Shown here piece by piece: positions 1,561 through 58,147 of a stretch of 64,000 bases of DNA. The stretch is from Opitutus sp. (GTDB lineage: Bacteria > Verrucomicrobiota > Verrucomicrobiia > Opitutales > Opitutaceae). The notes beneath the pieces are model-generated. The model was not told the DNA's origin, did not search any database, and was given only the letters and a program-made list of their open reading frames with translations. The number at the start of each line of letters is the position of its first letter. Position 1 is the stretch's first letter. The stretch is from assembly GCA_024707325.1 (NCBI GenBank), contig JANPZY010000001.1:2294501-2358500 (forward strand). Reading direction: 5' to 3'. Both the position numbers and the translations under genes were made by a program.

Positions 1561-2525
1561 GCACCGCCAGTCCCTCGACTTCTCCTGCGCTGACGCGCCG
1601 CCAGTTGCGCCAGATCGCGATCATCACCGCGGTCGCGATCGCGATCTTCGCGTTCATGCGCTGGCTGCCGACCGGCACGAATCTCAATCACATGGATTTC
1701 CGCGTCGATGCGAAGAACGTCATCGATTTCTGCGATCCGCTGAATCCGCAGTTCATCCCGGTCGTGGCGGTGACGTCGCCCGTGAACCTGACTTTGTCCG
1801 GCGTGCAAAACGCCCGCGCGGGCGAACTCGTCCGCGCCACCGCGGTGCTGCGCACGGCCAATGGCAAACCGATTGGCACGCCCGATCTCGTCGTTACGCA
1901 CACCGAGCTGCTGCATCTCCTCATCGTCGATCCTACGCTGACGGATTATCAGCACGTCCACCCGCAGCCGGGCCGCGCGCCGGGCGAGTGGGAGTTCGAG
2001 TTTACGCCGCGCTTCGGCGGCACCTATCGCGTGTTCGCCGATTTCACGCCGGCCGCGACCAACCGGGGACTGTATGCGCACGTCGACCTGCCCGTGGCCG
2101 GACCGACGCACGACCCGGTCCGCACCTTGTCCCGACCCGGTGCGCACTCGGTCCCGACTCAAGCCGGATTCGAGCCCGTCACGGACGGCGACTATGTATT
2201 CAAACTTTCAGGACAAACGTTCCCGATTCGCGCGGGGCAGCCGGCGGATTTGTGGCTCACGATCGAGCGCCTCGACGGTGGCACCGTGCCCCTTGAGCCG
2301 GTGATGGGCGCCTTCGCGCACCTGGTGGCTTTCGACGAAGCGAGCAGCGGTTTCGCGCACCTGCACCCGGGAGATCAGGATTTGACGAAACGCCCGGACG
2401 CGCATCGCCCGGCGCTCGATTTCAAGATCACGATTCCGCGCGCGGGCCGCTATGTGATTTGGTCGCAGGTGAATCTCGATGGGCGCGAAGTGTTCACGCC
2501 CTTCTGGTTCGAGGTCGTCGAGTGA
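1557..2525 (+). CDS. Membrane-anchored His-rich two-domain protein, putative metal-related
   Basis: 322 residues, with the ATG overlapping the SCO1 stop (ATGA), so translation is probably coupled. One N-terminal membrane segment (IAIITAVAIAIFAFMRWLP, about residues 20-38) is followed by an extracytoplasmic part with two similar beta-rich modules. Module one has LHLLIVDPTLTDYQHVHP then GGTYRVFADFTPA. Module two has AHLVAFDEASSGFAHLHP then AGRYVIWSQVNLDGREVF. The HxHP pair in each resembles extracytoplasmic modules found near copper/heavy-metal proteins, but I cannot name a family. Context (ctaA, SCO1) suggests a role in oxidase assembly or copper handling. The linker between modules is encoded by two units of the 22-bp repeat seen elsewhere in intergenic DNA (2115-2158). 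Confidence 0.7.
   Translation: MSTASPSTSPALTRRQLRQIAIITAVAIAIFAFMRWLPTGTNLNHMDFRVDAKNVIDFCDPLNPQFIPVVAVTSPVNLTLSGVQNARAGELVRATAVLRTANGKPIGTPDLVVTHTELLHLLIVDPTLTDYQHVHPQPGRAPGEWEFEFTPRFGGTYRVFADFTPAATNRGLYAHVDLPVAGPTHDPVRTLSRPGAHSVPTQAGFEPVTDGDYVFKLSGQTFPIRAGQPADLWLTIERLDGGTVPLEPVMGAFAHLVAFDEASSGFAHLHPGDQDLTKRPDAHRPALDFKITIPRAGRYVIWSQVNLDGREVFTPFWFEVVE
2104..2160. repeat. 22-bp repeat array H (2 units), inside a coding sequence
   Basis: Two exact 22-bp units (2115-2136 and 2137-2158) matching the intergenic arrays: CCGGTCCGCAC then CTTGTCCCGAC, and CCGGTGCGCAC then TCGGTCCCGAC. A degenerate half-unit precedes them. The reading frame stays open (DPVRTLSRPGAHSVPTQAG), and the repeat falls between the two modules of the protein. 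Confidence 0.85.
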
Positions 2526-2528
2526 GCC

Positions 2529-3298
2529 TCAGAACTTGAGGTGCTTCACTGTGAGTCCCTTGTTAATGAGTTGCTTTAGCGAATCGATGCCGATGCGCAG
2601 GTGCGCGGAGACATACGCGGCATCCACGGCCTTGTCGCTGCGGGCGGTTTTCACGCCCTCGGGTGTCATCGGTTGATCGGACACGAGGAGCAGCGCGCCG
2701 GTGGGGATTTGGTTGTAGAAACCGGTGGTGAAGATCGTGGCCGTCTCCATGTCGACGGCCATCACGTGGATTTTTTTAGGTAGCGCTTGAACGCCTCGTC
2801 GTGCTCCCACACGCGGCGGTTCGTGGTGTAAACGGTGCCGGTCCAGTAGTCGCGTGCGTGGTCGCGGATCGTGGTCGAGATCGCCTTTTGCAGCGCGAAC
2901 GCGGGGAGTGCGGGCACCTCGGGCGGCATGTAGTCGTTGCTCGTGCCTTCGCCGCGGATTGCCGCGATCGGGAGCACGAGTTCCCCGACGCCGGCGCGGT
3001 GTTTCACACCGCCGCATTTGCCGAGAAAGAGCACGGCCTCGGGTTTGATCGCGCTGAGCAGATCCATGATCGTCGCGGCCGTCGCGCTGCCCATGCCGAA
3101 GTTGATGATCGTGATGTCGTCGGCGGTGGCACTCGTCATCGGATAGTCGAGGCCCTCGACGTCCACCTTGTGCCACTCGGCGAAGAGTTTCACGTAGCGG
3201 TGAAAATTGGTCAGCAGGATGTAGCTGCCGAACTTCTTCAATGGGACTCCGGTGTAGCGCGGCAGCCAGTTCTCGACGATCTCACGGCGCGTTTTCAT
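2529..3298 (-). CDS. amn: AMP nucleosidase, frame broken in an A7 tract
   Basis: Hydrolyses AMP to adenine and ribose 5-phosphate (purine salvage or adenylate control). Start ATG at 3298 (MKTRREIVENWLPRYTG). Phosphorylase-fold features: INFGMGSATAATIMDLL, FLGKCGGVKHRAGVGELVLP, then HVMAVDMETATIFTTGFYN, containing the family's substrate-binding DMETATIF. The frame breaks at a run of seven T on the plus strand (2771-2777; A7 in the coding strand). One more A restores 257 codons, close to the short bacterial AMP nucleosidase length. In the coding strand the site reads CTA AAA AAA, which also fits a -1 slippery heptamer. Convergent with the preceding gene, three bases between stops. Confidence 0.85.
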
Positions 3299-3431
3299 GG
3301 GTGGGACATTGGTCGGTCGGTTTTTAAACACAGCTGAAAAGTTGCCACGGCGGGTGATTTGCGCGCTTCGGCAGATTTCTTCGCATCCTTCAGCAAAAGC
3401 TCGCGTCAGTCGTGTCGTAGTTTCCCCACAC

Positions 3432-6071
3432 ATGCTACTTTCCCCCCGGACCCCTGGCGCGGCGGCGTGGTCGTCGTGTCTCCGCTGGAGCAAGCACCTG
3501 TTTTTTGGCGCCTGTCTGGCCACGCCATCGCTCGCCGCGACCGAGTCGCTGATGGTGAGCTTCGAGCGCGATGCGCTGCCGGTGCTGGATCAATTTTGCT
3601 ACGACTGCCACGGCTACGGCAGCGACAAGGGCGGGGTGGTGCTCGATGGTTTCGAGGACGAAGCCGCACTGCGCGATCACGCGCTCTGGTTGCGCGTGCT
3701 GAAAAATGTCCGCAGCCACATCATGCCGCCGGCGGACAAGCCGCAGCCGAGCGAGGATGAAGTCGCGTCGCTCATCCGCTGGATCAAGCGCGATGCCTTC
3801 GCGCTCGATCCTTCGCTGCCGGATCCCGGCCGCGTGACGGTGCGCCGGCTCAATCGGGTCGAATATCGCAACACCATCCGCGAGCTGCTCGGCGTTGATT
3901 ACAACACAGCGGAAGAGTTTCCCGCCGACGACACCGGCCATGGTTTCGACAATATTGGCGACGTGCTCTCGATCTCGCCGATGCTGCTCGAGAAATATCT
4001 CGATGCGGCGCAGACCGTCGTCGCCGAAGCCGTGCCCACACGCTCTCGCGTGGTCGCGGAGGCTCCGATTCCCGGCCGTGATTTCGCGGTCGTTTCGTCG
4101 TCCTCCGTTGATGAAGCGGCTTCCTCGACCGAACAAACGTCGCGCCTGCGTCCTGCGCCGAAGCCGGTCGGCAGTGCGCTCGATCTGTCCTACTACACGC
4201 CGGCGCTCGTGCGCGCGGAACACGCGGTGAACTTCGCCGGGAGATATCAGCTCGTCGTCGATTTCAAAGCGGTCGAGCGCTACGTGGACGATAAGTTCGA
4301 TTACAACCGCTGCCGGTTGATCGTCCGCGATGGCGACGAGGTGTTGATGGATCAGGAATTCGTCCGACAGAGCGACAAGTCCTTCCAGTTTACCTTCGAT
4401 CGCGAGTGGACCGTGGGCACGCACGCCGTTTCGGTCGAGATCGTGCCGGTCGGCGAAGAGCAGCCGCAGCCGCGCTTGCTCCGCATTCGCCTGCAAAACG
4501 TCACCGTGCGCGGTCCGTTCGACGAGCGCCATTGGGTCGCGCCGAAAAACTACGCGAAATTCTTCCCGCGTCCGGTGCCGGAATCGGCCGAGGAAAAACG
4601 AAACTACGCCCGCGAGCTCTTGAGCAACTTCGCGCTGCGCGCCTTCCGTCGTCCCGCGGATGCCGACGTGGTGGAGCGTCTCGTTACTCTGGCCGAGCGC
4701 GCTTCGTCTGTTCCGGACGGCACCTTCGAGTCCGGCATCGCGCAGTCGATGGTCGCGACGCTCGCCTCGCCGCGCTTCATCTTCCGCGAGGAAGGCACGG
4801 AAGCGTTGCGGCCGGGGCAGGCGCACCCGTTCGTCGACGAATACGCGTTGGCGTCGCGGCTGTCTTATTTCCTCTGGTCGTCGATGCCCGACGAGGAACT
4901 CTTCCGGCTGGCGGGCGAGGGGAAACTGCGCGCCAATCTCGCGGCGCAGGTCGACCGCATGCTCAACGATCCGCGCTCGCAGGAGTTCGTGCGCAACTTC
5001 ACCGGCCAGTGGCTGCAGGCGCGCGACATCGAGACGGTGCCGATCAACGCGTTCGACGTTTACCTCCGCGAAAATCCGCGCCCCGACGTCGAAGAGGCGC
5101 GGGAAACCTTCCGTTCGATCGTGTCGATCCCCGATGAGAATCGCACGCCGGAGCAGCGCGAGGCGTTCGCCGAGGCGCGCCGGGTGTTTCTGGAATTTCT
5201 GCGCGCACCGAAGCCGGATCTCACCGATCCGCTACGCTCCGCGATGCGCCGCGAGTCGGAATTGGTATTCGAATACGTGATACGCAACGATCGCAGCCTG
5301 CTCGAGCTCATCGACGCCAACTACACTTTCCTCAACGAGGCGTTGGCGAAACACTACGACGTGCCGGGCGTGGAAGGCCCCGAGATGCGGCTCGTCACGC
5401 TGCCCGAGGACAGCCCGCGCGGCGGCGTGCTTACGCAGGGCACGGTGCTCGCCGTCACCTCGAATCCCACCCGCACGTCGCCGGTGAAGCGCGGCGTCTT
5501 CATCCTCGAGGCGATTCTCGGCACGCCGCCCGCGCCGCCGCCGCCCAATATCCCCCCGCTCGAAAACGCCGCGGGCGACAAACTCTCCGAACTCAGCTTG
5601 CGCGAGACGATGGCACTCCATGCGAAAAACAAGATGTGCGCTTCGTGCCACAGCCGCATGGACCCGCTTGGTCTCGCGCTCGAGAACTTCAATGCCCTCG
5701 GAAAATTCCGCACCGCCGAACTTAACCAACCGATTCAACCGGAGGGCAAATTGATCACCGGCGAGGCATTCACGAATATCCGCGAGCTGAAGCGCATCCT
5801 CGCGACCGGCCACCGTCACGATTTCTACCACAGCATCAGCGAGAAATTGCTCACCTACGCACTCGGCCGCGGCCTCGACTATCGCGATACCGATACGCTC
5901 GATCGCCTCGTCGAGCAACTCGAGGCTTCCGGCGGCAAGCCCTCGGTTCTCCTTCGCGGCATCATCAATGCTGCTCCGTTCCAGCAGCGCCGCGCCGACG
6001 ATACTTCCCTTGCGCTCGACTCCGTCGATACCGCAGCCACCCACATCGCTCAATCCGCACCCCAACCATGA
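3432..6071 (+). CDS. DUF1592/DUF1588 planctomycete-type cytochrome c protein
   Basis: 879 residues. I chose the ATG at 3432 because it opens a signal-like stretch (LFFGACLATPSLAA); an in-frame ATG at 3297 would overlap the amn start. Domains in order: N-terminal cytochrome-c-like module with heme motif CYDCH (about residue 57) and the distal MPPADKPQP loop; DUF1587 (VTVRRLNRVEYRNTIRELLG); a beta-rich DUF1595-like part; DUF1592 (YALASRLSYFLWSSMPDEEL); DUF1588 (CASCHSRMDPLGLALENFN, a second CxxCH); and DUF1585 at the end (LLTYALGRGLDYRDTDTLDR). Such proteins are typical of Planctomycetes and Verrucomicrobia and are encoded next to DUF1552 proteins, as here. The biochemical role is not established. 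First gene of a four-gene operon. Confidence 0.88.
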   Translation: MLLSPRTPGAAAWSSCLRWSKHLFFGACLATPSLAATESLMVSFERDALPVLDQFCYDCHGYGSDKGGVVLDGFEDEAALRDHALWLRVLKNVRSHIMPPADKPQPSEDEVASLIRWIKRDAFALDPSLPDPGRVTVRRLNRVEYRNTIRELLGVDYNTAEEFPADDTGHGFDNIGDVLSISPMLLEKYLDAAQTVVAEAVPTRSRVVAEAPIPGRDFAVVSSSSVDEAASSTEQTSRLRPAPKPVGSALDLSYYTPALVRAEHAVNFAGRYQLVVDFKAVERYVDDKFDYNRCRLIVRDGDEVLMDQEFVRQSDKSFQFTFDREWTVGTHAVSVEIVPVGEEQPQPRLLRIRLQNVTVRGPFDERHWVAPKNYAKFFPRPVPESAEEKRNYARELLSNFALRAFRRPADADVVERLVTLAERASSVPDGTFESGIAQSMVATLASPRFIFREEGTEALRPGQAHPFVDEYALASRLSYFLWSSMPDEELFRLAGEGKLRANLAAQVDRMLNDPRSQEFVRNFTGQWLQARDIETVPINAFDVYLRENPRPDVEEARETFRSIVSIPDENRTPEQREAFAEARRVFLEFLRAPKPDLTDPLRSAMRRESELVFEYVIRNDRSLLELIDANYTFLNEALAKHYDVPGVEGPEMRLVTLPEDSPRGGVLTQGTVLAVTSNPTRTSPVKRGVFILEAILGTPPAPPPPNIPPLENAAGDKLSELSLRETMALHAKNKMCASCHSRMDPLGLALENFNALGKFRTAELNQPIQPEGKLITGEAFTNIRELKRILATGHRHDFYHSISEKLLTYALGRGLDYRDTDTLDRLVEQLEASGGKPSVLLRGIINAAPFQQRRADDTSLALDSVDTAATHIAQSAPQP

Positions 6072-7450
6072 ACACGTCCACCCCGCACCCCTCCGGCTCG
6101 TTCACGATGGATCGCCGCAACTTTCTCCGCGGCCTCGGCGCGTGTATCGCGCTGCCCACGCTCGGTTCGATGATTCCATCCCGACTGGTCGGTGCGGGCG
6201 GCCCCGCGCTCGCGACCACCGCGACGGGCGCGCCGCTGCGCACGGCGTTCGTCTTTTTCCCCAACGGCGCGATTCCGTCGCATTGGTGGCCGACGGGCGG
6301 GCTCACGGATTTCGCGCTCGGCGCGACGCTGAATCCGCTCGAAACGCTGCGAAACAAGATCCAGGTGCTCGGCGGACTCGACCACTCCAACGCCAATGCC
6401 GGCAACGACGGCGGTGGCGATCACGCGCGCGGCAACAGCGTCTTCCTCACCGGGGTGCGTATCAACAAAAGCGCCACCGACGTCCGCGCCGGCATCTCGA
6501 TCGACCAGGTAATCGCCAACGAGATCGGCCACCTCACGCGCTTCCCGTCGCTGGAGTTGAGCTGCGACGCCGGTCGCAAATCCTCCGGCTGCGATTCCGG
6601 TTATGCGTGCTCCTATGTTTACAACGTGTCGTGGAAAAATCCCACGACGCCGATGACGCCCGAGTCCAATCCGCGTCTCGTCTTCGAGCGTCTCTTCGGC
6701 GCGGGCGAGCATGGCGAGCGCGCCGCCAACGCCCAGCAACGCATGGCCACCCGCCGCTCCGTGCTCGATTTCGTGCTCGAGGATGCGCGCCGGCTCACGC
6801 GGCGCCTCGATCTGCGCGATCGCGCAAAGATGGATCAATACCTCACCGGTATCCGGGAAATTGAGACACGTATCCAGCGCGCCGAGCAGTTCGGTCCGCC
6901 CGCCGATCCGAATTTCCCCACGCCGAAGGGCATCCCCGCCACGCAGGCGGAATACGTCGAGATCATGTATGACATGCTCGCGCTCGCCTTCGAAACCGAT
7001 TCCACGCGCGTCGCGACCATGATTCTCGGACACGACGGCGACAACCGGTCCTTCAGCGAGATCGGCATTGCCGAGGGTCACCACGACCTCTCGCACCATC
7101 AGAACAATCCCGAACGCATCGCCAAGGTCGCGCAAATCGACCGCTGGTATGCGAGCCAGTTTGGTCGCTTCCTGCAGAAGCTCGACAGCATTCAGGACGT
7201 GGACGGCAACTCGATCCTCCACAACTCGCGCATCCTCTACGGCAGCGGCAACGCCGACGGAAATCGTCACACGCACGAGAATCTGCCCGCCTTGCTTGCT
7301 GGCGGTGGCGGCGGATTGCTCACGCCCGGTCGTTTCGTCCAGCATGGCTCGACCCCGATGAGCAACCTCTTCCTCAGCCTCGCCGATCAAGTCGGCGTGA
7401 CGCACCTCGAGCGATTCGGCGACTCGACCGGCCGTCTCACGAATGTCTGA
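6068..7450 (+). CDS. DUF1552 domain protein with Tat signal
   Basis: 460 residues, ATG overlapping the preceding stop (ATGA). The N-terminus has a twin-arginine signal (MDRRNFLRGLGACIALP), so it is probably exported folded, with or without a cofactor. The rest is the DUF1552 family: VFFPNGAIPSHWWPTG, GGLDHSNANAGNDGGGDHARG, FARLVFERLFG-like segment, and MILGHDGDNRSFSEIGIAEG followed by HHDLSHHQNNPE. The fold resembles alkaline-phosphatase-type DUF1501 proteins, but the function is unknown. Its near-constant partnership with DUF1592 cytochromes suggests a periplasmic oxidoreductase or hydrolase complex served by the c-type hemes encoded upstream and downstream. Confidence 0.88.
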   Translation: MNTSTPHPSGSFTMDRRNFLRGLGACIALPTLGSMIPSRLVGAGGPALATTATGAPLRTAFVFFPNGAIPSHWWPTGGLTDFALGATLNPLETLRNKIQVLGGLDHSNANAGNDGGGDHARGNSVFLTGVRINKSATDVRAGISIDQVIANEIGHLTRFPSLELSCDAGRKSSGCDSGYACSYVYNVSWKNPTTPMTPESNPRLVFERLFGAGEHGERAANAQQRMATRRSVLDFVLEDARRLTRRLDLRDRAKMDQYLTGIREIETRIQRAEQFGPPADPNFPTPKGIPATQAEYVEIMYDMLALAFETDSTRVATMILGHDGDNRSFSEIGIAEGHHDLSHHQNNPERIAKVAQIDRWYASQFGRFLQKLDSIQDVDGNSILHNSRILYGSGNADGNRHTHENLPALLAGGGGGLLTPGRFVQHGSTPMSNLFLSLADQVGVTHLERFGDSTGRLTNV

Positions 7451-8352: not shown

Positions 8353-8362
8353 TTTTTTCTCT

Positions 8363-8809: not shown

Positions 8810-8818
8810 GCTTTTTCA

Positions 8819-8845
8819 GTAGGGACGGCTCTCCGAGCCGCGCCG
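8819..8845. repeat. GGGACGGCTCTCCGAGCCG-type palindromic repeat
   Basis: AGGGACGGCTCTCCGAGCCG just after the cytochrome stop, with an imperfect palindromic core (CGGCTC / GAGCCG). A related sequence forms a perfect hairpin at 43806-43830, so this looks like a dispersed palindromic repeat that may act as a 3' end. Confidence 0.6.
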
Positions 8846-8853
8846 CCTCCGTC

Positions 8854-9029
8854 TCTATCCGCACACCGGCGCGATCCCGTCCGCACCTGAACCCGACCGT
8901 GTGCGCACCTTCGTTCGACGGTGTCCGCACTGCGTCCCGACCCCGTCCGCACTGTGTCCCGACACGGTGCGCACTCTGTCTCGACCGTGTCCGCACTTCG
9001 TCCTGAAGCGATCCGCATCGAGCTTCGAA
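8854..9029. repeat. 22-bp repeat array A (8 units)
   Basis: Eight contiguous units with exact 22-bp phasing (8854, 8876, 8898, 8920, 8942, 8964, 8986 and 9008). The unit in this orientation is about CGTGTCCGCAC plus TTCGTCCCGAC. It lies between the end of the cytochrome operon and the convergent small gene at 9302-9502. Confidence 0.9.
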
Positions 9030-9048
9030 CGTGTCGCACCTCCCAAAG

Positions 9049-9080
9049 CGTTCTCGTTCTCTCAATCGTTCTCGTTCTCG
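9049..9080. repeat. CGTTCT hexamer repeat element
   Basis: Two copies of CGTTCTCGTTCTC separated by a few bases, directly after array A. The same hexamer pattern appears as an inverted pair at 57905-57982. Confidence 0.65.
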
Positions 9081-9114
9081 CAGACTTGGTCTGCACGTTC
9101 CCGCACTTGAGCAG

Positions 9115-9196
9115 GGTGGAGCCCGACGTCCTCGTCGGGCTGTTCACCTTGCATTCGCCGACTCCATTCAAGCCGCGGGGGACGGCGGGTTCCACC
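9115..9196. repeat. Double-hairpin palindromic element, copy 1
   Basis: The left arm contains GGTGGAGCCCGACGTCCTC then GTCGGGCTG, an internal hairpin (GCCCGACG / CGTCGGGC). The right arm is a near complement ending GGCGGGTTCCACC. The outer arms (GGTGGAGCC / GGTTCCACC) also pair. A second, more symmetrical copy is at 24188-24263. Confidence 0.75.
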
Positions 9197-9301
9197 TTCA
9201 GTCTCGCTCCGTCCTGGTCTGTCGTTTGCGCCCAAAAGAAAAACCGCCGCGGAACAAAGTCGCGCGGCGGTTAAGGGAAACGCTCGAGGGCGTCGGGTGA
9301 G

Positions 9302-9502: not shown

Positions 9503-9579
9503 GGCGGGGTAGGTGACATAGGCTTCGGCGCGTTGTGCCGAAAACCTTAGGGAAATTTGGTCACGTTTAGATGGTAAAG

Positions 9580-9623: not shown

Positions 9624-9637
9624 TTTTCGCGTGGAAC

Positions 9638-11327: not shown

Positions 11328-11362
11328 TTGCGGGCCTCACGACCTCGGGGCAGGGTGGCGGC

Positions 11363-15009: not shown

Positions 15010-15081
15010 GTTGGCCCTCTAGCGGGGGCGTTGGCCGAGGGGGGCGGATGTTTTTTCCGCGAGTTGTCCTTCGCTCGCGTG

Positions 15082-15279
15082 GAGACGGGACAGAGTGCGG
15101 ACCGAGTCATGCCAAGGTGCGGACTGGGTCGTGCCACAATCCGTCCCGCGCCGAGCCACGGTGTGGATCGAGTCGGGACACAGTCCGTCCCATGTCGCAC
15201 CAAGGTGCGTCCACGGTTGAGCCACGGCGCGTCCCACGTCGGGACAACGTGCGAACATGGTCGCAGCGCGGTGCGCCCC
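15082..15279. repeat. 22-bp repeat array B (9 units)
   Basis: Nine units in exact 22-bp phase starting at 15082. In this orientation the half-units are about GTCGGGACAAG and GTGCGTCCCAC. It fills most of the 389-bp gap between the convergent NUDIX and batD genes. No gene is supported in 15004-15392. Confidence 0.9.
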
Positions 15280-15286
15280 TGGATTT

Positions 15287-15380
15287 GTCGTTCTGAGCGC
15301 AGCGAAGAATCCAGTGTGCGATTCGTCGCGAAGCACGGCTGCAAAGCTCCAGGTGGATTCTTGCTGCGCTCGGAAAGACA
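15287..15380. repeat. Inverted-repeat element (TTCTGAGCG...GAAGAATCC type), copy 1
   Basis: Left arm GTTCTGAGCGCAGCGAAG followed by AATCCAG, right arm TGGATTCTTGCTGCGCTCG, imperfectly complementary and about 45 bp apart. When translated such elements give SERSEE or ILSEAKN peptides, known in databases as repeat-derived false proteins. It directly follows array B. Confidence 0.75.
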
Positions 15381-24336: not shown

Positions 24337-25311
24337 ATGCCACTCGCTGCGCTCAACTACAAAAATCCCGTCTGGCCCGGCTACTTCGCGGACCCGTTCG
24401 TGCTGCGTGTCGGGAACGAGTATTTCGCCTACGGCACCGGGTCGGACGAGGGCAATGGACGCCAGCCAGACGGACGCGTTTTTCCACTGCTGCGCTCGAA
24501 CGACCTGGTGAACTGGGAGTATCTCGGCGGCGCGCTCGAGCCGCTCACGGATTCGCGGTCCACGGCGTATTGGGCACCGGAAGTCGCCGAGCGGGAGGGG
24601 AAGTTTTTCATGTATTACGCGGCGGACATGCGGTTGCGTATTGCGATCGCGGATACACCGCGCGGACCGTTTCGCGATGCGGGAAACGAACTGTTTCCCG
24701 ACGAACCGTTTTCGATCGATGCTCATCCCTTTCGCGATCCGAAGGACGGACGTTGGTATCTGTTTTTCGCGAAGGATTTTTTCGATGGACGCACGGGCAC
24801 TGGCACCGCGGTGGTGCCGCTGGCGGACGACATGATGACTCCGCGCGAGCCGCCGCGCGTCGTCGTGCGCGCGAGCGCCGACTGGCAAATCTACGAGCGC
24901 AACCGTCGTTGGTATGACCGCGATTGGGAAGCGTGGCACACAGTCGAGGGGCCGTTTGTGGTCGAGCGCGGTGGACGCTACTTCTGTCTCTACTCCGGCG
25001 GACGTTGGGAAACGGCGGATTACGGCGTGGGTTTTGCCGTGGCGGATCATCCGCTGGGACCGTGGACCGACGAGTGGAGTCACCTCGGGCCGACCGTGCT
25101 ACGCGGACGCGAAGGCGAGGTGCTCGGTCCCGGCCACAACAGTGTGGTGCTCGGTCCCGACGACCGGACGCTCTACATGGTTTATCACGCGTGGGACGTG
25201 CAGAAAACCGCCCGCCGCATGTGCATCGATCCGCTCGTGTGGGTGGAGGGCTGCCCGAAATGCGTCGGTCCTACCAGTGGCCGAACCGAACCGCGCCCAA
25301 GTGCAGACTAA
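24337..25311 (+). CDS. Glycoside hydrolase family 43-like protein
   Basis: 324 residues from the ATG at 24337, no signal peptide seen, so cytoplasmic. Five-bladed propeller features: GYFADPFVLRVGNEYFAYG (catalytic-base Asp region), STAYWAPEVAEREGKFFMYY, SIDAHPFRDPKDGRWYLFFA, and GPGHNSVVLGPDDRTLYMVY followed by HAWD. Likely beta-xylosidase or alpha-arabinofuranosidase on imported oligosaccharides; substrate cannot be fixed. The last codons and the stop (25309-25311) lie within the first unit of repeat array C. Confidence 0.83.
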   Translation: MPLAALNYKNPVWPGYFADPFVLRVGNEYFAYGTGSDEGNGRQPDGRVFPLLRSNDLVNWEYLGGALEPLTDSRSTAYWAPEVAEREGKFFMYYAADMRLRIAIADTPRGPFRDAGNELFPDEPFSIDAHPFRDPKDGRWYLFFAKDFFDGRTGTGTAVVPLADDMMTPREPPRVVVRASADWQIYERNRRWYDRDWEAWHTVEGPFVVERGGRYFCLYSGGRWETADYGVGFAVADHPLGPWTDEWSHLGPTVLRGREGEVLGPGHNSVVLGPDDRTLYMVYHAWDVQKTARRMCIDPLVWVEGCPKCVGPTSGRTEPRPSAD

Positions 25312-25377
25312 GTCGAGCCAAGGTGCGCACCGTGTCGGGACGAGGTGCGGACACGGTCGCACCAGGGTGCGGCGCGA
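25290..25377. repeat. 22-bp repeat array C (4 units)
   Basis: Units at 25290, 25312, 25334 and 25356 in exact phase, half-units about GTCGGGACGAG and GTGCGGACACG. The array overlaps the GH43 stop at one end and reaches to within a base of the stop of the convergent TIGR03067 gene at the other, filling the 67-bp gap. Confidence 0.9.
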
Positions 25378-25378
25378 G

Positions 25379-25735
25379 TCAGGAGGCCTTGCGGCGGTAG
25401 GTGACGAGGTAGCGCGAATCGCGTGCGGTGGTGGCGAATTCGGAGGGATAGCGGCCGTCGAGGCCGTAGCAGATGCGGAGGCGGTCGCCTTTGAGCTGGT
25501 AAATGCAGGCGATCGTGCGGCCGGCATTGGGGCCGGCGGTGCCGCGGAGTTCGAGGCGGGCGGGTTCGCCTTCGGACTTCTGTTCGGCCCGGCCCGTATC
25601 CGAAATTTGGTTACCATAGCGCACGGTGTAGTGCGTGGCGGTCAGTTCGAGTTCGAGCGACACGAGCGCTTCGGGCGGCGCGGTTTCTCCGGAAAGTTCG
25701 GCGCGGATGGCCTGCCAGTGACCAAAAAGAGACAT
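25379..25735 (-). CDS. TIGR03067-type small protein
   Basis: 118 residues. Pattern of the TIGR03067 family (Planctomycetes/Verrucomicrobia): WQAIRAELSGETAPPEALVS near the start, ACIYQLKGDRLRICYGLDG, and PSEFATTARDSRYLVTYRR at the end, forming a small beta-barrel-like domain. Function unknown. No signal peptide. It is followed upstream (operon order) by rmuC, 20 bp away. Confidence 0.72.
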   Translation of the reverse strand: MSLFGHWQAIRAELSGETAPPEALVSLELELTATHYTVRYGNQISDTGRAEQKSEGEPARLELRGTAGPNAGRTIACIYQLKGDRLRICYGLDGRYPSEFATTARDSRYLVTYRRKAS

Positions 25736-35675: not shown

Positions 35676-37028
35676 ATGTCGCCTGTCGTTCCCACCGTGC
35701 CCGTCGATGGACCCGCCGCCTTGCGCGCACTCGCCCGCGCGTTCGGCCAGTTTCACGATTTCGGAAATTTCGTGAGCGCGCTCTCCGCCGCGTTGGAGAA
35801 ATCCGCCGTCTTCGAAAAGACCACGCTGCTGCTCGAACGAAATCTCGCCGAAGGTGCGGCGCCCTTTTCTCCGGGCTCGCTTACGCTGCCGGTTTCGATG
35901 GGCCCGCAACGCCTCGGCGTCGTCCAGGTTTCAGGCGATTCCGCGACGCGCCTCTTCGGTCCCGAGGACCTGCACCTGATGGCTGGTCTCGCCGATTTTC
36001 TCGGCGCCGTGCTCGGCCAGTCGCTTCGTTTTCAAGAAGCGGAGAAAGCCCGCGAGCTTCTGCGGTTTCTCCTCAATCAGGCGCCGGTCGGCATCGCGGC
36101 GTATGGCGAGGATCTGCGTCCGATCGTCAGTAACGATCTCGCCACGCGCTGGCTCGCGGGGCTCACGCTGCCCGCCGAGTTGTTAACCGGCGAGGGCGGG
36201 GGCTTCCATCTCCAGACCGGCGGCAAACTGATCTACGGCGAGGCGCGGAAAATTGCCGGCGACACCAGCGGCTCGATCCTTCTCGTGCTGCACGATCTCA
36301 CGCTCGATCAGGTGCGCCTGCTCGAACTCCTGAAACGCGACACCTACCGCGCGCTTGCCGAGCACGATGTTGTTTCGTTTGCGATCATCGAAAGCCCGCA
36401 GGTGCAGGACGGCGTGCTGCGCGCCTTGCCCGCCGTGCGGGCACAACTCACTGCGACGGAAGCGGCCGGTCCTTACGATGCGCATCGGATTGCGCTCGTG
36501 TTCCGCGGTGCGAGAGCGCTGCAGGCACGGGCGCGCTTGCGCACGTTACGCGCGGCGCTCGGCTCCGGACCGCTCCGGCTCGGCCTGGCCGAACTCGGAC
36601 GCAACGGAAACTCGCCGGAAGCGCTGCTCGATGCCGCGCTGCAGCAACCGCAGGATTTCGACGCCGCGCTCCGCGCGCGCATTCTCGTGCACGACGAGAA
36701 TCCCGACGTCGCGCAGTCGTTCGCCCTGTTTCTGGGCAAAGAATTTCAGGTGGTCGTCAGCACTCAGACGGAGGAGGCGCTGAAGCGGGTGCGACAAGAA
36801 CCGTTCGAAGCGATCGTGACCGAACTCGAACCGCGCAACGGCCCGGCCGGACTCGACGTGCTCGCCGAAGCCAGCGCCGCGCAGCCCGGTATCCAAGGTT
36901 TCATTACAACCCTGCGCGCTCCGCTCACCAGCGGAATTCCGGCGGAGATTCCGCTGATCGAAAAGCCCTTCGATATCTCGGCGATCACCGCTCTTTTCAG
37001 GCAACGGCTCACCGTCGTGGCGAAGTGA
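35676..37028 (+). CDS. GAF-PAS-pseudoreceiver regulatory protein
   Basis: 450 residues, starting 1 bp after the kinase stop. GAF-like domain about residues 15-115, PAS about 130-215 (FLLNQAPVGIAAYGEDLRPI), a middle part about 225-325 that resembles a degenerate cyclase fold without GGDEF (LRLGLAELGRNGNSPEALL), and a C-terminal receiver-like domain (334-448). The receiver has D340/E341 and K430 (IEKPFD), but the phospho-acceptor position is Glu (E383 in IVTELEPRNGP), so it may be locked in a phosphorylated-like state. No DNA-binding domain. The array-bearing 3' gap follows. Confidence 0.75.
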   Translation: MSPVVPTVPVDGPAALRALARAFGQFHDFGNFVSALSAALEKSAVFEKTTLLLERNLAEGAAPFSPGSLTLPVSMGPQRLGVVQVSGDSATRLFGPEDLHLMAGLADFLGAVLGQSLRFQEAEKARELLRFLLNQAPVGIAAYGEDLRPIVSNDLATRWLAGLTLPAELLTGEGGGFHLQTGGKLIYGEARKIAGDTSGSILLVLHDLTLDQVRLLELLKRDTYRALAEHDVVSFAIIESPQVQDGVLRALPAVRAQLTATEAAGPYDAHRIALVFRGARALQARARLRTLRAALGSGPLRLGLAELGRNGNSPEALLDAALQQPQDFDAALRARILVHDENPDVAQSFALFLGKEFQVVVSTQTEEALKRVRQEPFEAIVTELEPRNGPAGLDVLAEASAAQPGIQGFITTLRAPLTSGIPAEIPLIEKPFDISAITALFRQRLTVVAK

Positions 37029-37035: not shown

Positions 37036-37195
37036 GCCACGACGCGGTGCGTCCCGTGTCGTGCCCAAGTTCGGACCGAGTCACGCCAAAGTGCGTCCAC
37101 GGTCGTGCCAAGGTGCGTCCCGAGTCGGGACAAGGTGCGGACAGGGTCGAGCCACGGTGCGCACCGGGGTGGGACGCGGTGCGGCGTGAGTCGCG
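37036..37195. repeat. 22-bp repeat array D (7 units)
   Basis: Units at 37036, 37058, 37080, 37102, 37124, 37146 and 37168, then a partial unit that abuts the ybeY stop (37196). The half-units show the 11-bp substructure best: GTCGTGCCAAG, GTGCGTCCCGA, GTCGGGACAAG, GTGCGGACAGG. It fills the convergent gap of 167 bp. Confidence 0.92.
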
Positions 37196-37732
37196 TCAGC
37201 GTTTTTTCTTCTGTGCGCGCAGCGTGAAGCGCGGGCGGACGTCCGAAAGGAGTTTCATCGCGCGGGCTTCGGCGCGGCGCATTTCGCGTTTCTTCGCGGG
37301 TTGCAGGTCGTCGTAGCCGGCGAGGTGCAGCCAGCCGTGCACGACGTAGAGCGTAAGTTCGCTCGAGAAGTCGCGTCCGTGTTCGCGCGCGTAGGCCGCG
37401 GCGGTGTCGGCGGAGACGCAAATCTCGCCCGCCGAACCGGCGCCAGGCGGAAGGCCGAGCGCGGTGTCGCCTTCGAAGGTGATCACGTCGGTCGTGGTGG
37501 GATCGTCGAGAAAATCGGCGTGAAGCTGCGCGAGCGCGCGATCGGTGAGGAACGCGAGCGAGAGTTCGCCGGCGGGGCAGCCGCCACGGAAGAGCGCGCG
37601 GTGCGCGTCGAGCGTCGCGATCACTTCGAGAACGGCGGCGCGGCTGAAGCGAAGGCGCGGGTGGCGGTTGCTGATGCTGACCGCGCGCTCGATGGGCGCG
37701 GCGGCGGCCGAAGAAGAGCGAGCGCGGCTCAT
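37196..37732 (-). CDS. ybeY: Endoribonuclease YbeY
   Basis: 178 residues. Metal-dependent RNase for rRNA maturation and ribosome quality control. Family core: ELSLAFLTDRALAQLHADFL, DDPTTTDVITFEGD, GEICVSADTAAAYAREHG, then LYVVHGWLHLAGYDD. The usual zinc motif is HGxLHLxGYDH; here the third His is replaced by Asp, still a possible ligand. A lysine-rich tail (LRAQKKKR) ends the protein. Part of hit-phoH-pgpH-ybeY; the ATG overlaps the pgpH stop. Confidence 0.9.
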   Translation of the reverse strand: MSRARSSSAAAAPIERAVSISNRHPRLRFSRAAVLEVIATLDAHRALFRGGCPAGELSLAFLTDRALAQLHADFLDDPTTTDVITFEGDTALGLPPGAGSAGEICVSADTAAAYAREHGRDFSSELTLYVVHGWLHLAGYDDLQPAKKREMRRAEARAMKLLSDVRPRFTLRAQKKKR

Positions 37733-43830: not shown

Positions 43831-43863
43831 GCTGTATCCATCCTCAGGATACCACGGTTTGAG

Positions 43864-43929
43864 GGGACGCGCACCGAGTTGCGGTAGGATCCGCACTCTG
43901 TCGCGACCGCTCCCGCATGGTGACGCGAC
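43864..43929. repeat. 22-bp repeat array E (3 units)
   Basis: Units at 43864, 43886 and 43908; the last two end in GTCGCGAC and GACGCGAC-type half sites. More degenerate than the other arrays. Confidence 0.7.
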
Positions 43930-44238: not shown

Positions 44239-44307
44239 GAAATGAGCGCAGGATCGAGTGGACGGCTACGCCGCGCGAAGTGGATTCTTCGCTTCGCTCA
44301 GAATGAC
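44078..44307. mobile_element. MITE-like element with 27-bp perfect terminal inverted repeats
   Basis: 44078-44104 and 44281-44307 are exact reverse complements (27 bp, containing TTCTGAGCGAAGCG and AAGAATCCA), with 176 bp between. Same family as the imperfect pair at 15287-15380. No transposase inside, so if mobile it depends on one elsewhere. Target-site duplication was not evident by eye. Confidence 0.65.
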
Positions 44308-44328
44308 AAAGCAGGGGCGTTTGCGTCC

Positions 44329-44526
44329 ATGTCCGCATTGCCGTGAGCCCCCGGTGCGCACCCTGGCGCGACTCGGTGCGCACTTCGTCCCGATTCGAGC
44401 CGCATCACGCGGCATCCCCGTCCGCACCTTCCCTCGACGATGGCCGCACCTTGTTCCGACCGTGTCCGCACCGCTGCACGACCCGTTGCGGATCTTGGCG
44501 CGATCCGGTGCGCACACGACCGCGAC
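44329..44526. repeat. 22-bp repeat array F (9 units)
   Basis: Nine exact 22-bp units from 44329 to 44526, half-units about CCGGTGCGCAC and CCTGGCGCGAC. It sits between the inverted-repeat element (ending 44307) and the GTCAAC palindrome (44547). The 900-bp interval 43767-44666 holds only repeats, hairpins and one doubtful small gene. Confidence 0.92.
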
Positions 44527-44546
44527 TCGGCTCACGCGTGGCTCAC

Positions 44547-44666: not shown

Positions 44667-45662
44667 ATGTCCACTTCGCTGAAAAAGGTTTTGGAGGCGC
44701 TGTCGCCTTCGCTGTTGGTTGGTCTTGTCGTGACGGGAGCGTTTTTCGCCTTCGTGGCGTGGGACCAGTCGCACTGGTGGCAGTTGAAAGAGGACTACTC
44801 GTTCGGCTGGCTGGTGCCGGTGTTCGTGGCGTTCGTGGTTTACGATCGCTGGGCACGCATCACGGAGGCGGCGCGCGCGTGTGCCGCCGACGGAAGCGCC
44901 CGGGCGGTCGGCTTCGGCGCCATGCTGTTGAAGCTGGCGGTGTGGGCCTCGATCGTGGGCGGCGCGGGCATGTTTTTGCTCGGCGCGCTTTATCGCGCGG
45001 GCGCGGGCACATCGCAACCGAGCACGCTGGCGTTGACGATCGGTGCGGTCGGGCTGGGCGTGGGCGCGATCTTTCTGAACGCGCCGTCGGCGGCGTCGGT
45101 CACGCCGGTGCGTTTTTGGCGCGACGCGCGGCTGCAGTTGCTCGCGTGGTTCACGTTTCCGCTGCTCGTGTGGCTGATCTCGGCGCCGATGGTCTCGGTG
45201 GTGGAGCGGGAGTTGAATTTGTTTCTGCTGCGCAAGGTCGTGGCGGTGGTCTCGTTCGTGTTCGAGACGCTCGGGCTGCCGATCGAGCAGCGTGGCAATG
45301 TGCTGCTCTTGCCGTCGGGCAGCGTGGGCGTGGAGGACGCGTGCTCGGGCATCCGCTCGCTGACGGCGTGCTTGTTCGCCGGATCGTTTCTCGCGGCGGT
45401 GTTTTTGGAAAAGTGGTGGAAAAAAATCCTGCTCGTGGGCTCGGCGATGCTGCTCGCGTTTATCACGAATCTCGGGCGCGGACTCTTCCTCACGAGCTGG
45501 GCGTATCGCAACGGCGCGGACTCGATCGGCGGCACGGTGCACGATGTCGCGGGCTACGCGGTGCTCGGCGTGACCGTGCTCGGTCTGCTGTGCCTGTTGC
45601 CGTTGATGAATCTCGGCAGCGAACCCGAGCCGGTCGCCTCGGCGGAAACAAAACGCGAGTGA
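44667..45662 (+). CDS. Exosortase/archaeosortase family protein
   Basis: 331 residues, about eight membrane helices. Membrane-embedded cysteine transpeptidase-like enzyme that recognises short C-terminal sorting signals such as PEP-CTERM. The catalytic set is complete: Cys in VGVEDACSGIRSLTACL, Arg in FITNLGRGLFLTSWAY, His in GGTVHDVAGYAVLGV. Ribosome-binding site AAAGGCGGG precedes the ATG at 44667. No target protein or exopolysaccharide genes are in the window. Convergent with the M16 gene, 9 bp between stops. Confidence 0.88.
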   Translation: MSTSLKKVLEALSPSLLVGLVVTGAFFAFVAWDQSHWWQLKEDYSFGWLVPVFVAFVVYDRWARITEAARACAADGSARAVGFGAMLLKLAVWASIVGGAGMFLLGALYRAGAGTSQPSTLALTIGAVGLGVGAIFLNAPSAASVTPVRFWRDARLQLLAWFTFPLLVWLISAPMVSVVERELNLFLLRKVVAVVSFVFETLGLPIEQRGNVLLLPSGSVGVEDACSGIRSLTACLFAGSFLAAVFLEKWWKKILLVGSAMLLAFITNLGRGLFLTSWAYRNGADSIGGTVHDVAGYAVLGVTVLGLLCLLPLMNLGSEPEPVASAETKRE

Positions 45663-45671
45663 GGGGAGCGC

Positions 45672-52845: not shown

Positions 52846-52976
52846 CTTCCTCGATCACTGTGGCATTCGCGTGTCGTTGCGGTGACGACCACGTGAAATC
52901 GGCGCGCCCGCGAATTTAGCGCAATTCGGTATTGCACCCTCCTCCGTGGTTTCTACGGTCGCGCCTTTTACGCCGA

Positions 52977-55586: not shown

Positions 55587-55638
55587 TTTTCTTGTGCGAG
55601 CTTGTTTCGGGTGGGACCCGCACTAGCGTTTCTCCGCC

Positions 55639-56103
55639 GTGGAGTCGCCCACCGAACTCATCGCCCAACCTTCCGCCGTCCTGCTCGATTTCTCTGCTGC
55701 CTCCCGCGAAGCAGCGATCCGCACCTTGCACGGGAGCATCCAAACCGCGCCCGGCGTGCGCGATGCCGAGCGGTTTCTCTTCGATCTGCTCGAGCGCGCG
55801 ATGCTTTCGTCCGTGTGCATCGCACCCGAGATCGCGATGCCGCACGCGCGGACCGATTCGGTGGATCAGATGGTCTTCGCCGCGGCGCGCCTCGCCGAAC
55901 CCGGCGTGGCGTTCGATTCCGAGCACCCGAAAGTGCGCCTCATGTTTCTGATCGGCACACCGCGTCAGCACGTCGACGCGTATCTGCAGCTCGTGGCCGC
56001 GCTCTCGCGCACCTTGAAGGCCGATGGTGTGCTCGCCGGTTTGTTATCCGCGCGCAATAAGGAGGAGTTTCGCGGGTGGCTCGCCCGCGGCGTGCAGGCA
56101 TGA
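55639..56103 (+). CDS. PTS EIIA (PtsN-like) domain protein
   Basis: 154 residues from a GTG at 55639. EIIA-type 2 fold: ERFLFDLLERAMLSSVCIAP, then EIAMPHARTDSVDQMVFAAA, with the phosphorylatable His in MPHAR, and KVRLMFLIGTPRQHVDAYLQ. No transporter EIIB/EIIC genes nearby, so a regulatory PTSNtr-type role is more likely than sugar uptake. Its stop overlaps the ATG of the CLC channel (ATGA); a dedicated EIIA/CLC pair recurs in some bacteria, implying regulation of the channel. Confidence 0.83.
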   Translation: MESPTELIAQPSAVLLDFSAASREAAIRTLHGSIQTAPGVRDAERFLFDLLERAMLSSVCIAPEIAMPHARTDSVDQMVFAAARLAEPGVAFDSEHPKVRLMFLIGTPRQHVDAYLQLVAALSRTLKADGVLAGLLSARNKEEFRGWLARGVQA

Positions 56104-57875
56104 GCGTCATGCCGCAGCTGCCAAAGCCGCTGACGGAGCGCCTGCTCCGGTTGCTGCGCTGGCGCGTTTGGGTTCAGGAAAAACTTCAGCCGACCGAGTG
56201 GCAGATCACGCTGCTGTGGGCGGCGCTCGCCGGATTCCTCGGCGCGATGGTTTCGCTGGTCTTCACCGCGCTGACGGAGGGTATCCACGAACTCCTTACG
56301 GGTTACGACTCGGGCGTGGTGGAGACGATGCGGCAGCTCCCGTGGTGGGCGCGGGTGCTCGTGCCGGCCGGCGGTGGTCTGCTCGCGGGCCTCACGTTGC
56401 TGCTCGGTCGCCGCATCACGCGCGGACGCAGCTCCACCGACTACATGGAAGCGATCGTCATCGGCACCGGCGAGCTGCCCGTGCGCGCGAGTCTCGTGAA
56501 AAGCGCCGCGGCGCTTTTCAGCATCGGCTCCGGCGGGTCGATCGGACGCGAAGGTCCCCTCGTGCAACTCGCCGCAGTCGTGGCTTCGGCCATCGGCCGC
56601 TGGCGGAAATTTTCTCCGCCGCAACTCCGCCTCCTTGTAGCTTGCGGCGCCGCGGCGGGTATCGCGTCGGCCTACAACGCCCCGATCGCCGGTTCGTTCT
56701 TCGTCGCCGAAATCATCCTCGGCACGATCGCGATGGAGAGCCTCGGACCCCTCGCGGTTTCAGCCGTCGTCGCCGCGCTCACGATGCGCGTGCTCACCGA
56801 CGCGCAACAACTCTATCGCGTGCCGGAGTTCCATCTCCACTCGCCGTGGGAGATGGGGCCCTACGTCGTGCTCGGTCTGCTCGTCGGCACGCTTGCGCCG
56901 TGGTTCCTGCGCTCGTTGCGTCGCGCGGAGCAGTGGTTCATGACGACAAAGCTTCCGCCGATCGCGCGACTTGTGCTCGGTGGCATCATCGTCGGCGACC
57001 TGGCGATCTTCGTGCCCGAGGTGTGCGGCAACGGCTACACGGTCGTGGTCGATATTCTGAACGGGAAAATTTTCTGGGAAGCGCTGATCCTGATCTTCCT
57101 CGCGAAGTGGGTCGCGACGGCATCCTCCGTCGGCTCCGGCGCTCCGGGCGGTGTGTTCACGCCCGCACTCTTCATGGGCGCCAGCGCCGGTTATCTTTTC
57201 GGCACGGCGGTGCACCACGTATGGCCGCAGGGTGCGGTCGATCCGCAGGCGTTCGCGCTCGTCGGCATGGGTGCGTTTCTCTCGGCGGCGAGTTACGCGC
57301 CGATCATGGCGGTGATCATGCTCTTCGAAATGACGCTGAGCTACGACATCATCCTGCCCCTCATGCTCTGCAGCGTCATCGCCTACTACACGGCGAAGGG
57401 ACTCGAAGGACAGTCCCTCTACTCGGAGGCTCTGCGCCGGAAATCCGCCGAGACGCCGCAGCCCGAAATGCCGACCGGCCGCGTGCGCGATCTCATGAAG
57501 GTCGCGCCGCCGCAGGTGAAGAACACCGCTCCATTTGCCGAGCTCGCGCGCATGTTTCTCTCCGTGCGCGTGAACAACATCTACGTCGTTTCCGCCGGCG
57601 AACGTTTCCTCGGCGCGGTGTCGCTGCACGACATCAAACCGTATCTCGGCGATGCCGACCTCGCGAGCCTCGTGATCGCGAGCGACGTGCTGCGCGAAGA
57701 TTTCCCGCGGATCGGCCCCGAAGAAACGCTCGCCGACGCGCTCAACGGCTTTCTCAACCGCCCGATCGAGCGCCTGCCCGTCGTGGATCCCGCAACCGGC
57801 AAACTCCTCGGCAGCCTCGCGAAGACCGATCTGCTCCTCGCGCTCGTCGAAACGACGAAGAAGAAAACGGCGTAA
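56100..57875 (+). CDS. CLC family chloride channel/antiporter with CBS domains
   Basis: 591 residues. Selectivity motifs: GTGELPVRASLVKSAAALF then GSGGSIGREGPLVQLAAVV (the GREGP gate with Glu, proton-coupling type), FFVAEIILGTIAMESLGPLA, and GSGAPGGVFTPALFMGASAG (GxFxP). About ten membrane segments, then two CBS-like modules in the C-terminus (RVRDLMKVAPPQVKNTAPFA; LVIASDVLREDFPRIGPEET) that may bind adenine nucleotides. Translationally coupled to the PtsN-like gene. Confidence 0.9.
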   Translation: MSVMPQLPKPLTERLLRLLRWRVWVQEKLQPTEWQITLLWAALAGFLGAMVSLVFTALTEGIHELLTGYDSGVVETMRQLPWWARVLVPAGGGLLAGLTLLLGRRITRGRSSTDYMEAIVIGTGELPVRASLVKSAAALFSIGSGGSIGREGPLVQLAAVVASAIGRWRKFSPPQLRLLVACGAAAGIASAYNAPIAGSFFVAEIILGTIAMESLGPLAVSAVVAALTMRVLTDAQQLYRVPEFHLHSPWEMGPYVVLGLLVGTLAPWFLRSLRRAEQWFMTTKLPPIARLVLGGIIVGDLAIFVPEVCGNGYTVVVDILNGKIFWEALILIFLAKWVATASSVGSGAPGGVFTPALFMGASAGYLFGTAVHHVWPQGAVDPQAFALVGMGAFLSAASYAPIMAVIMLFEMTLSYDIILPLMLCSVIAYYTAKGLEGQSLYSEALRRKSAETPQPEMPTGRVRDLMKVAPPQVKNTAPFAELARMFLSVRVNNIYVVSAGERFLGAVSLHDIKPYLGDADLASLVIASDVLREDFPRIGPEETLADALNGFLNRPIERLPVVDPATGKLLGSLAKTDLLLALVETTKKKTA

Positions 57876-57904
57876 CAACCATCGTCCGAAGGACGGGCAC
57901 CGCG

Positions 57905-57982
57905 TCGTTCTCGTTCTCGACGGGCGGATACGCGGGCACTGCGTGGGCCGAGAACAAGAAAGAGAACGAAGAACGAGAACGA
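57905..57982. repeat. CGTTCT hexamer inverted-repeat element
   Basis: TCGTTCTCGTTCTCG on the left and GAACGAAGAACGAGAACGA on the right, complementary over most of their length, with about 25 bp between. Same hexamer as at 9049-9080. Directly upstream of array G. Confidence 0.7.
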
Positions 57983-58015
57983 TCCTCTCGCTCGCCACCG
58001 TATCGTAGCGCGACC

Positions 58016-58147
58016 TCAAGCCGCACCTTGTTGCGACTGTGTGCGCATCGGGGCGCGACCGTGTCCGCACCTTGGCGTGACCCGGTCCGTAACGTGTCCC
58101 GACTCGATGCGAACATTGTTACGACGAAGGGCGCACGTTTTGCCGGT
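58016..58147. repeat. 22-bp repeat array G (6 units, last one degenerate)
   Basis: Units at 58016, 58038, 58060, 58082, 58104 and 58126; half-units about CGTGTCCGCAC and CTTGGCGTGAC. The array ends exactly where the Pho box begins. The gap 57876-58232 has no gene. Confidence 0.88.

What the first reader, a model, noticed from the sequence alone, without database searches (positions are those of the whole stretch)
2104..58147. Dispersed tandem-repeat family with exact 22-bp period made of two 11-bp half-units, eight loci in 64 kb
Arrays A (8854-9029), B (15082-15279), C (25290-25377), D (37036-37195), E (43864-43929), F (44329-44526), G (58016-58147) and H (2104-2160) all hold exact 22-bp phasing although individual bases vary. 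Each unit is two alternating half-units, for example GTCGGGACAAG and GTGCGGACACG in array D. Eleven bp is close to one turn of DNA, so equivalent bases recur on one face of the helix, as expected for a filament- or array-forming DNA-binding protein. The phase is conserved although the sequence drifts, implying selection on spacing or amplification by slippage. Variable unit number and orientation argue against simple gene relics. I know no named family with this unit.
Basis: seen in the sequence. Interest (0 to 1): 0.88.

Follow-up and report, generated by a model that had tools for sequence, protein, structure and literature searches.

The report
Evenly spaced 22-bp repeat arrays
One environmental bacterium of the family Opitutaceae carries several hundred short DNA arrays built on a strict 22-base rhythm, dotted at unusually even intervals along its chromosome and not found in the relatives examined; they look like a home-made set of landmarks for organising or exchanging its DNA, but what reads them is unknown.

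Summary
All eight window arrays are there (E is marginal). The family is genome-wide: 1506 pattern hits in this 4.04-Mb genome against at most 8 in each of 99 family relatives, and about 360 arrays estimated from a 31% sample. The unit is GTSCGSAC-nnn-GTCGnGMC-nnn, head to tail; 674 of 705 unit steps are exactly 22 bp even when other steps cost nothing. Samples of 21 relatives show no analogous periodic arrays. Arrays occupy 44 of 109 convergent gaps but 5 of 150 divergent ones, in either orientation. Local slippage is not the main source: neighbouring units are hardly more alike than units of distant arrays, yet distant arrays share long exact tracts far above a model. Ends fall at any phase, without target duplication. 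Three arrays inside genes lie over coding sequence without clear insertion. Arrays avoid each other: no two array-bearing gaps lie within 2 kb (8.4 expected), and counts per 20 kb are under-dispersed. Best reading: DNA-level, evenly spaced sites for a chromosome-organising protein, kept alike by exchange between arrays. No protein was identified; uptake-sequence-like drive and selfish conversion remain serious rivals.

The parts
2060..2169 (-). array H, about 5 unit positions, 2-3 clear, inside gene 1521/1605-2525
   Evidence: (63.6 bits), units printed; gene homologues
8843..9018 (-). array A, 8 units, downstream of gene ending 8809
   Evidence: (133.6 bits)
15073..15270 (+). array B, 9 units, convergent gap between gene ends 15003 and 15393
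   Evidence: (145.6 bits)
25279..25388 (+). array C, 5 units, convergent gap 25311/25379, overlapping both called gene ends
   Evidence: (79.4 bits)
37047..37200 (+). array D, 7 units, fills most of the convergent gap between stop codons at 37028 and 37196 (ybeY) and overlaps the latter by 5 bp
   Evidence: (137.0 bits)
43853..43918 (-). array E, 3 degenerate units, marginal
   Evidence: 20.1 bits against best chance 15.9
44362..44537 (-). array F, 8 units, upstream of the exosortase-like gene 44667-45662
   Evidence: (118.8 bits)
58027..58136 (-). array G, 5 units, between co-directional genes ending 57875 and starting 58233
   Evidence: (93.0 bits)

Best explanation
A lineage-specific family of about 360 phased arrays that act as DNA, not RNA. 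Each 22-bp unit carries two 8-bp pseudo-palindromic sites (GTSCGSAC and GTCGnGMC) one helical turn apart, so a protein, or a topoisomerase that wraps DNA, can bind along one face over roughly 90-290 bp. Arrays sit where they disturb least (3' ends, convergent gaps) and are spaced about 8-11 kb apart, as expected of chromosome-organising sites (domain boundaries, gyrase or nucleoid-protein loading). Units are kept alike by short-tract exchange between arrays genome-wide. Shown: phasing, conservation pattern, location, orientation neutrality, shared tracts, even spacing in the sample. Inferred: the exchange process, the protein, the wrapping or bridging, the organising role.
For: Exact 22-bp steps (674 of 688; 674 of 705 without step penalty) with very uneven conservation: positions 4, 5 and 15 differ from consensus in 3-8% of 799 units, position 16 in 67%. 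Orientation is neutral: 25 same and 22 opposite to co-directional neighbours. Gaps of at least 60 bp holding an array: 44 of 109 convergent, 46 of 345 co-directional, 5 of 150 divergent (Fisher p 1.8e-14 for convergent against divergent). Spacing: variance/mean 0.39 against a gap-matched null of 0.86 (sd 0.15), 0 pairs of array-bearing gaps under 2 kb against 8.4; holds over four score cut-offs and in 34 stretches chosen without knowledge of hits (VMR 0.33; gap-arrays 0.27 against 0.74, sd 0.17). Three of the ten arrays in genes were aligned with homologues and overlie sequence of homologous length. Precedent: E. coli gyrase has an extended motif with phased 10-bp G/C variation, taken from 130-bp windows, and its sites are enriched downstream of highly transcribed operons and in BIME-2 (PMC6379681, passages).
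Against: No binding protein found or tested. Not found in any relative examined, so no conserved system is known to need the arrays. The 11-bp G/C wave is modest (amplitude 0.127, less than 0.160 and 0.168 at 3.67 and 2.75 bp). Inter-array copying alone could explain likeness without function. Spacing was measured inside 20-kb stretches plus the window, not along the whole chromosome. Array polarity does not follow GC skew clearly (63 against 48 arrays).
Confidence: 0.4

Rival explanations
1. Selfish minisatellite spread by ectopic conversion: a chance 22-bp repeat seeded itself by short-tract, microhomology-driven copying into tolerated DNA; no host function.
For: Array pairs sharing exact in-phase 30-mers: 28 against 1.1 modelled, 34-mers 12 against 0.1. 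Sharing does not depend on distance: 5 of 79 pairs in one stretch and 494 of 5916 pairs in different stretches share a 20-mer. Random-phase ends, no target duplication. Arrays avoid promoters and genes. Not found in relatives.
Against: Does not predict mutual avoidance of arrays nor near-invariant CG cores beside free positions; few off-length steps.
Confidence: 0.28
2. Uptake-signal-like sequence: a DNA-import machine prefers arrays, so molecular drive accumulates them in place in unconstrained DNA.
For: Uptake sequences are described as without orientation bias, significantly evenly spaced according to Karlin et al., over-represented in non-coding and unconstrained coding DNA, and explicable by drive (PMC1939737, passages; [quoted passage not shown] Arrays match on orientation, spacing, species restriction and overlay of coding DNA.
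Against: Isolated units are few (16.8 per Mb at 16 bits or more, over a background of about 2) and 10 of 111 arrays lie in called genes, whereas that paper gives 65% and 35% of uptake sequences within reading frames in two species. Competence was not tested.
Confidence: 0.18
3. Bidirectional transcription terminators or roadblocks at gene ends.
For: Arrays abut stop codons (48 of 137 distances to 3' ends lie in the three 11-bp bins from -11 to +21) and prefer convergent gaps.
Against: Intrinsic terminators are about as common in convergent gaps with arrays (48% of 44) as without (54% of 69); even spacing is not expected.
Confidence: 0.07
4. Structured RNA element made from the arrays.
For: Array RNA folds more stably than dinucleotide shuffles on both strands (mean z -2.23 and -2.04, 40 arrays of six or more units).
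Against: Excess complementarity over independence is slight (best stem of eight pairs 0.027, combined z 4.5) and absent at the free positions 3 and 6; orientation random; no Rfam match in the window. Pseudo-palindromic motifs can explain the stability.
Confidence: 0.03

Closest known systems
REP/BIME elements, especially BIME-2 of E. coli
   Same: High-copy extragenic repeats, clustered, frequent between convergent genes (PMC1525189, passages); [quoted passage not shown]
   Different: Here one orientation per array, strict 22-bp head-to-tail steps, no clear hairpin covariation, units of 11-bp halves, mutual avoidance; Y1 transposase is not enriched (1 match; 0-13 in 18 relatives).
DNA uptake sequences (DUS/USS)
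   Same: Orientation-neutral, evenly spaced by one account, accumulate in unconstrained DNA (PMC1939737, passages).
   Different: Tandem arrays instead of single short motifs; mostly outside genes.
Dispersed bacterial tandem repeats such as MIRU or cyanobacterial STRR (recalled, no call)
   Same: Tandem units in many intergenic places.
   Different: Units hardly more alike within arrays than between them; very even spacing.
Plasmid centromere arrays with about 11-bp repeats such as ParR/parC (recalled, no call)
   Same: Short phased repeats expected to bind protein along one DNA face.
   Different: Hundreds of chromosomal copies instead of one site per replicon.

Membership tests
REP/BIME | Imperfect palindrome forming a conserved stem-loop | tested here: not met
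   only slight excess complementarity (0.027 over the best eight pairs, z 4.5); units contain 8-bp pseudo-palindromes without loop
REP/BIME | Units in alternating orientation within a mosaic element (abstract of PMC2817692 in the listing) | tested here: not met
   head-to-tail steps of exactly 22 bp, 674 of 688 or 705
REP/BIME | Frequent between convergent genes | tested here: met
   44 of 109 convergent against 5 of 150 divergent gaps
REP/BIME | Dedicated REP-associated tyrosine transposase | tested here: inconclusive
   one Y1_Tnp match in this genome, 0-13 in 18 relatives
DNA uptake sequence | Biased DNA uptake | not testable with these tools
   needs an assay
DNA uptake sequence | Even spacing and no orientation bias | tested here: met
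   (31% sample)
DNA uptake sequence | Single short motif, common inside genes | tested here: not met
   isolated units few; 10 of 111 arrays in called genes
MITE or other inserted element | Defined ends and target-site duplication | tested here: not met
   ends at 19 (left) and 20 (right) of 22 phases in 96 arrays; direct repeats of 4-8 bp not above shuffled pairs
Classical minisatellite by slippage | Copies within an array clearly more alike than between arrays | tested here: not met
   0.633 against 0.612; a few local duplicates (26-mers: 7 against 0.1)
Gyrase strong site or nucleoid-protein array | Binding of the protein in vitro or in vivo | not testable with these tools
   no binding data

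The most novel reading that the evidence does not exclude
This lineage has evolved its own chromosome-wide system of regularly placed, helically phased arrays, able to be written over existing DNA rather than inserted, that divides the chromosome into roughly 10-kb units through an unidentified array-binding protein, with units evolving as one recombining population across the genome.
Probability: 0.3. Interest if true: 0.92.

Novelty: new variant of a known kind. Interest (0 to 1): 0.77.

Why it matters
Even spacing of non-coding elements against a gap-matched null is unusual evidence that dispersed bacterial repeats may serve the chromosome as a whole. About 360 arrays in one genome and none found in relatives give a clear case for how such systems arise, and the arrays are ready baits for finding the protein that reads them. 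Arrays lying over coding sequence without clear insertion suggest that repeats can spread by replacement.

Tried and rejected
Replication polarity: an all-plus run on contig 1 in the first, capped hit list did not hold; sampled arrays are mixed (58 +, 53 -) and do not follow GC skew clearly (63 against 48). Higher-order repeat: no fixed order of unit types, only weak dependence beyond one unit. RNA hairpins. Transposition: no fixed ends, no target duplication; Y1 transposase not enriched. Terminator role. Synteny at array D: the left neighbour gene has no match in the loci around ybeY of 29 relatives, so insertion there could not be judged. Homologues of the L122 protein: none in 30 relatives. 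Isolated units as uptake signals: few. Similar DNA: array D against 72,556 plasmid records, array A against 50,697 phage records, patterns against viral contigs and genome contigs: no match in any; records of this or a very near genome may be left out. Papers: among the papers listed by searches (15 of 43 listed; 8 of 9 listed) I saw none that describes this family; passages were read in four papers, all others were seen only in listings.

Caveats: the gene caller is home-made. Array scores and conservation use a profile trained on the same genome. The second-order model does not hold every longer-range coupling. The counts of hits on two strands include some overlapping hits, as the unit is nearly palindromic. 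One search ended with a script error after its useful output. The fold-back half of L058 is probably an assembly artefact: one of its arrays was dropped, and the half beyond 11400, but it was kept. Some early stretches were chosen with listed hits in view, so repeats the spacing test on 34 stretches chosen without them. The Fisher tests set arrays against gaps of at least 100 bp; one search repeats them with counts of gaps.

Full report
What was checked. Seven score 64-146 bits and E scores 20, where the best chance chain was 15.9 bits in 1.2 Mb of relatives and 14.9 in the reversed own sequence. The unit, from 799 units of 111 arrays of at least 40 bits, reads GTGCGGACCGGGTCGCGCCAAG by majority and is better written GT-S-CG-S-AC nnn GTCG-n-G-M-C nnn: two 8-bp pseudo-palindromes 11 bp apart. 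Steps are exactly 22 bp in 674 of 688 cases, and in 674 of 705 when the parser is allowed steps of 17-27 bp without cost, while 5254 of 17578 bases differ from the consensus.

Extent. The window lies in a 4.04-Mb, 4-contig genome. The pattern GTGCGNACNNNGTCGNGNCNNNGTGCG with up to 2 mismatches has 742 + 764 hits there (some overlap on the two strands) and none for the reversed control pattern; among 99 other genomes of the family the highest count is 8, in the range of the controls. The only other held genome of the genus has 2. In 287 other genomes of the phylum a slightly stricter pattern gives at most 3. A longer exact pattern, with 25 matches in the 1.25-Mb own sample, has none in the genome collection; a shorter one, with 67 own matches, has none in viral contigs; records of this genome or one very near it may be left out of both. 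I sampled 61 stretches including the window (1,248,313 bases, 31% of the genome): 129 arrays of at least 16 bits, 111 of at least 40 bits, 58 plus and 53 minus, which scales to about 360 arrays (fold-back half of L058 left out). To see whether relatives use a different unit, I scanned 400 kb of the same-genus genome and 40 kb each of 20 other family genomes for periodicity at lags 8-89 not divisible by 3: no window reached the threshold, while this genome gave 375 windows at 22 and 283 at 44. The names of 80 loci encoding a homologue of the gene that holds array H (Opitutus, Opitutaceae, Opitutae, Verrucomicrobia and others) place the organism among the Opitutaceae; these loci hold no arrays (best score 13.6).

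How the arrays are built. In 42 arrays adjacent inner units are 63% identical and units of different arrays 61%, so arrays are mostly not recent local slippage products; local duplicates exist but are few. Spacer and centre bases are coupled over short range, with only weak dependence beyond one unit. Distant arrays share exact in-phase tracts: 28 pairs share a 30-mer against 1.1 in a position-specific second-order model, 12 share a 34-mer against 0.1, with no effect of proximity (5 of 79 pairs in one stretch against 494 of 5916 in different stretches share a 20-mer). I read this as short-tract exchange in a genome-wide population of units, although the model does not hold every longer-range coupling. 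Array ends fall at almost any phase of the unit and flanks show no target duplication (96 arrays).

Where they lie. Of 111 arrays, 10 lie in called genes, 4 at stretch edges, 44 in convergent, 47 in co-directional and 6 in divergent gaps. Counted by gaps of at least 60 bp, 44 of 109 convergent, 46 of 345 co-directional and 5 of 150 divergent gaps hold an array. Orientation is neutral to co-directional neighbours (25 same, 22 opposite). Array edges often coincide with stop codons. Intrinsic terminators are about equally common in convergent gaps with and without arrays (48% of 44, 54% of 69). Convergent gaps are longer than in pooled relatives (mean 175 against 153) in spite of shorter co-directional and divergent gaps, so in gaps arrays seem mostly to add DNA.

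Overlay in genes. In three of the ten gene cases homologues could be aligned. In the CbiX-like gene (array L132:1795-1904, 72 bits) the array columns hold 38 residues against 35-48 in 19 homologues; in the TgpA/transglutaminase gene (array L134:5884-5971, 42 bits) 30 against 28-48 in 14; in the gene holding array H 38 against 22-44 in 19. The best array score in those homologous loci is 12.0. The array columns are variable among the homologues too (identity 0.35 against 0.53 upstream for CbiX, 0.44 against 0.50 for TgpA, 0.39 against 0.60 for the H gene; to this genome 0.28, 0.40 and 0.34). Thus the array pattern lies over sequence of ordinary length: replacement or in-place change, not clear insertion. 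H lies in a variable linker and the TgpA case partly in a variable loop, so an in-frame insertion cannot be excluded there. L122 had no homologues to compare; the other six gene cases were not aligned.

Even spacing. Counts per 20 kb have mean 1.74 and variance 0.69 over 58 stretches (variance/mean 0.39). A null that drops arrays into the real gaps with probabilities matched to gap type and length gives 0.86 (sd 0.15); pairs of array-bearing gaps under 2 kb number 0 against 8.4, and the median distance is 7.9 kb against 5.0 kb; for variance/mean and for pairs under 2 kb none of 4000 simulations was as low. Convergent gaps alone have variance/mean 0.80. Cut-offs of 20, 30, 40 and 60 bits agree (at 20 bits one pair in gaps, and three pairs of any kind, lie under 2 kb; at 40 bits one pair of any kind, at 1983 bp). 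Because some early stretches were chosen with known hits in view, I repeated it on 34 stretches chosen without: variance/mean 0.33 for all arrays, and 0.27 against 0.74 (sd 0.17) for arrays in gaps.

Mechanism. Neutral orientation, unchanged terminators and lack of clearly covarying stems speak for a role as DNA, although array RNA does fold more stably than shuffles on both strands. Conservation is very uneven, with CG cores nearly fixed beside free positions, and off-length steps are few; this and the mutual avoidance favour sequence-specific recognition and a chromosome-scale role. E. coli gyrase offers a precedent: an extended motif with phased 10-bp G/C variation, and enrichment downstream of highly transcribed operons and in BIME-2 (PMC6379681, passages read); REPs frequently lie between convergent genes (PMC1525189, passages). 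The 11-bp G/C wave here is modest, so gyrase itself is only one candidate. Uptake sequences share orientation neutrality, reported even spacing and accumulation in unconstrained DNA (PMC1939737, passages), but are single motifs often inside genes. A purely selfish, conversion-driven repeat explains likeness and restriction to one lineage but not avoidance between arrays.

Verdict. A real, genome-wide, lineage-restricted family with an unexpected even spacing. Function and reader protein remain inferred.

Noticed in passing
window about 15283-15317 and 44288-44312; flanks of arrays in L053, L059, L060, L064, L065, L067: A second dispersed repeat resembling GTCATTCTGAGCG...GCGAAGAATCC (or its complement) lies beside several arrays.
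   Followed up: no
window 9040-9080 and 57949-57982: Runs of CGAGAA/CGTTCT-type short repeats beside arrays A and G.
   Followed up: no
L058 3945-18852 (end of contig C2): Inverted self-match at 95.8% identity with 410 gaps, most simply a fold-back assembly artefact; its duplicated array was dropped from several later counts.
   Followed up: partly
window 673-1560: One gene carries both CusF-like and SCO1/SenC domains, next to the gene that holds array H.
   Followed up: no
window 44667-45662: Exosortase EpsH-like gene just downstream of array F.
   Followed up: no
G000 against G003 and 20 other family genomes: This genome has shorter co-directional and divergent gaps than pooled relatives but longer convergent gaps, and its assembly is smaller than that of its genus mate (4.0 Mb at 93.6% completeness against 6.0 Mb).
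   Followed up: partly
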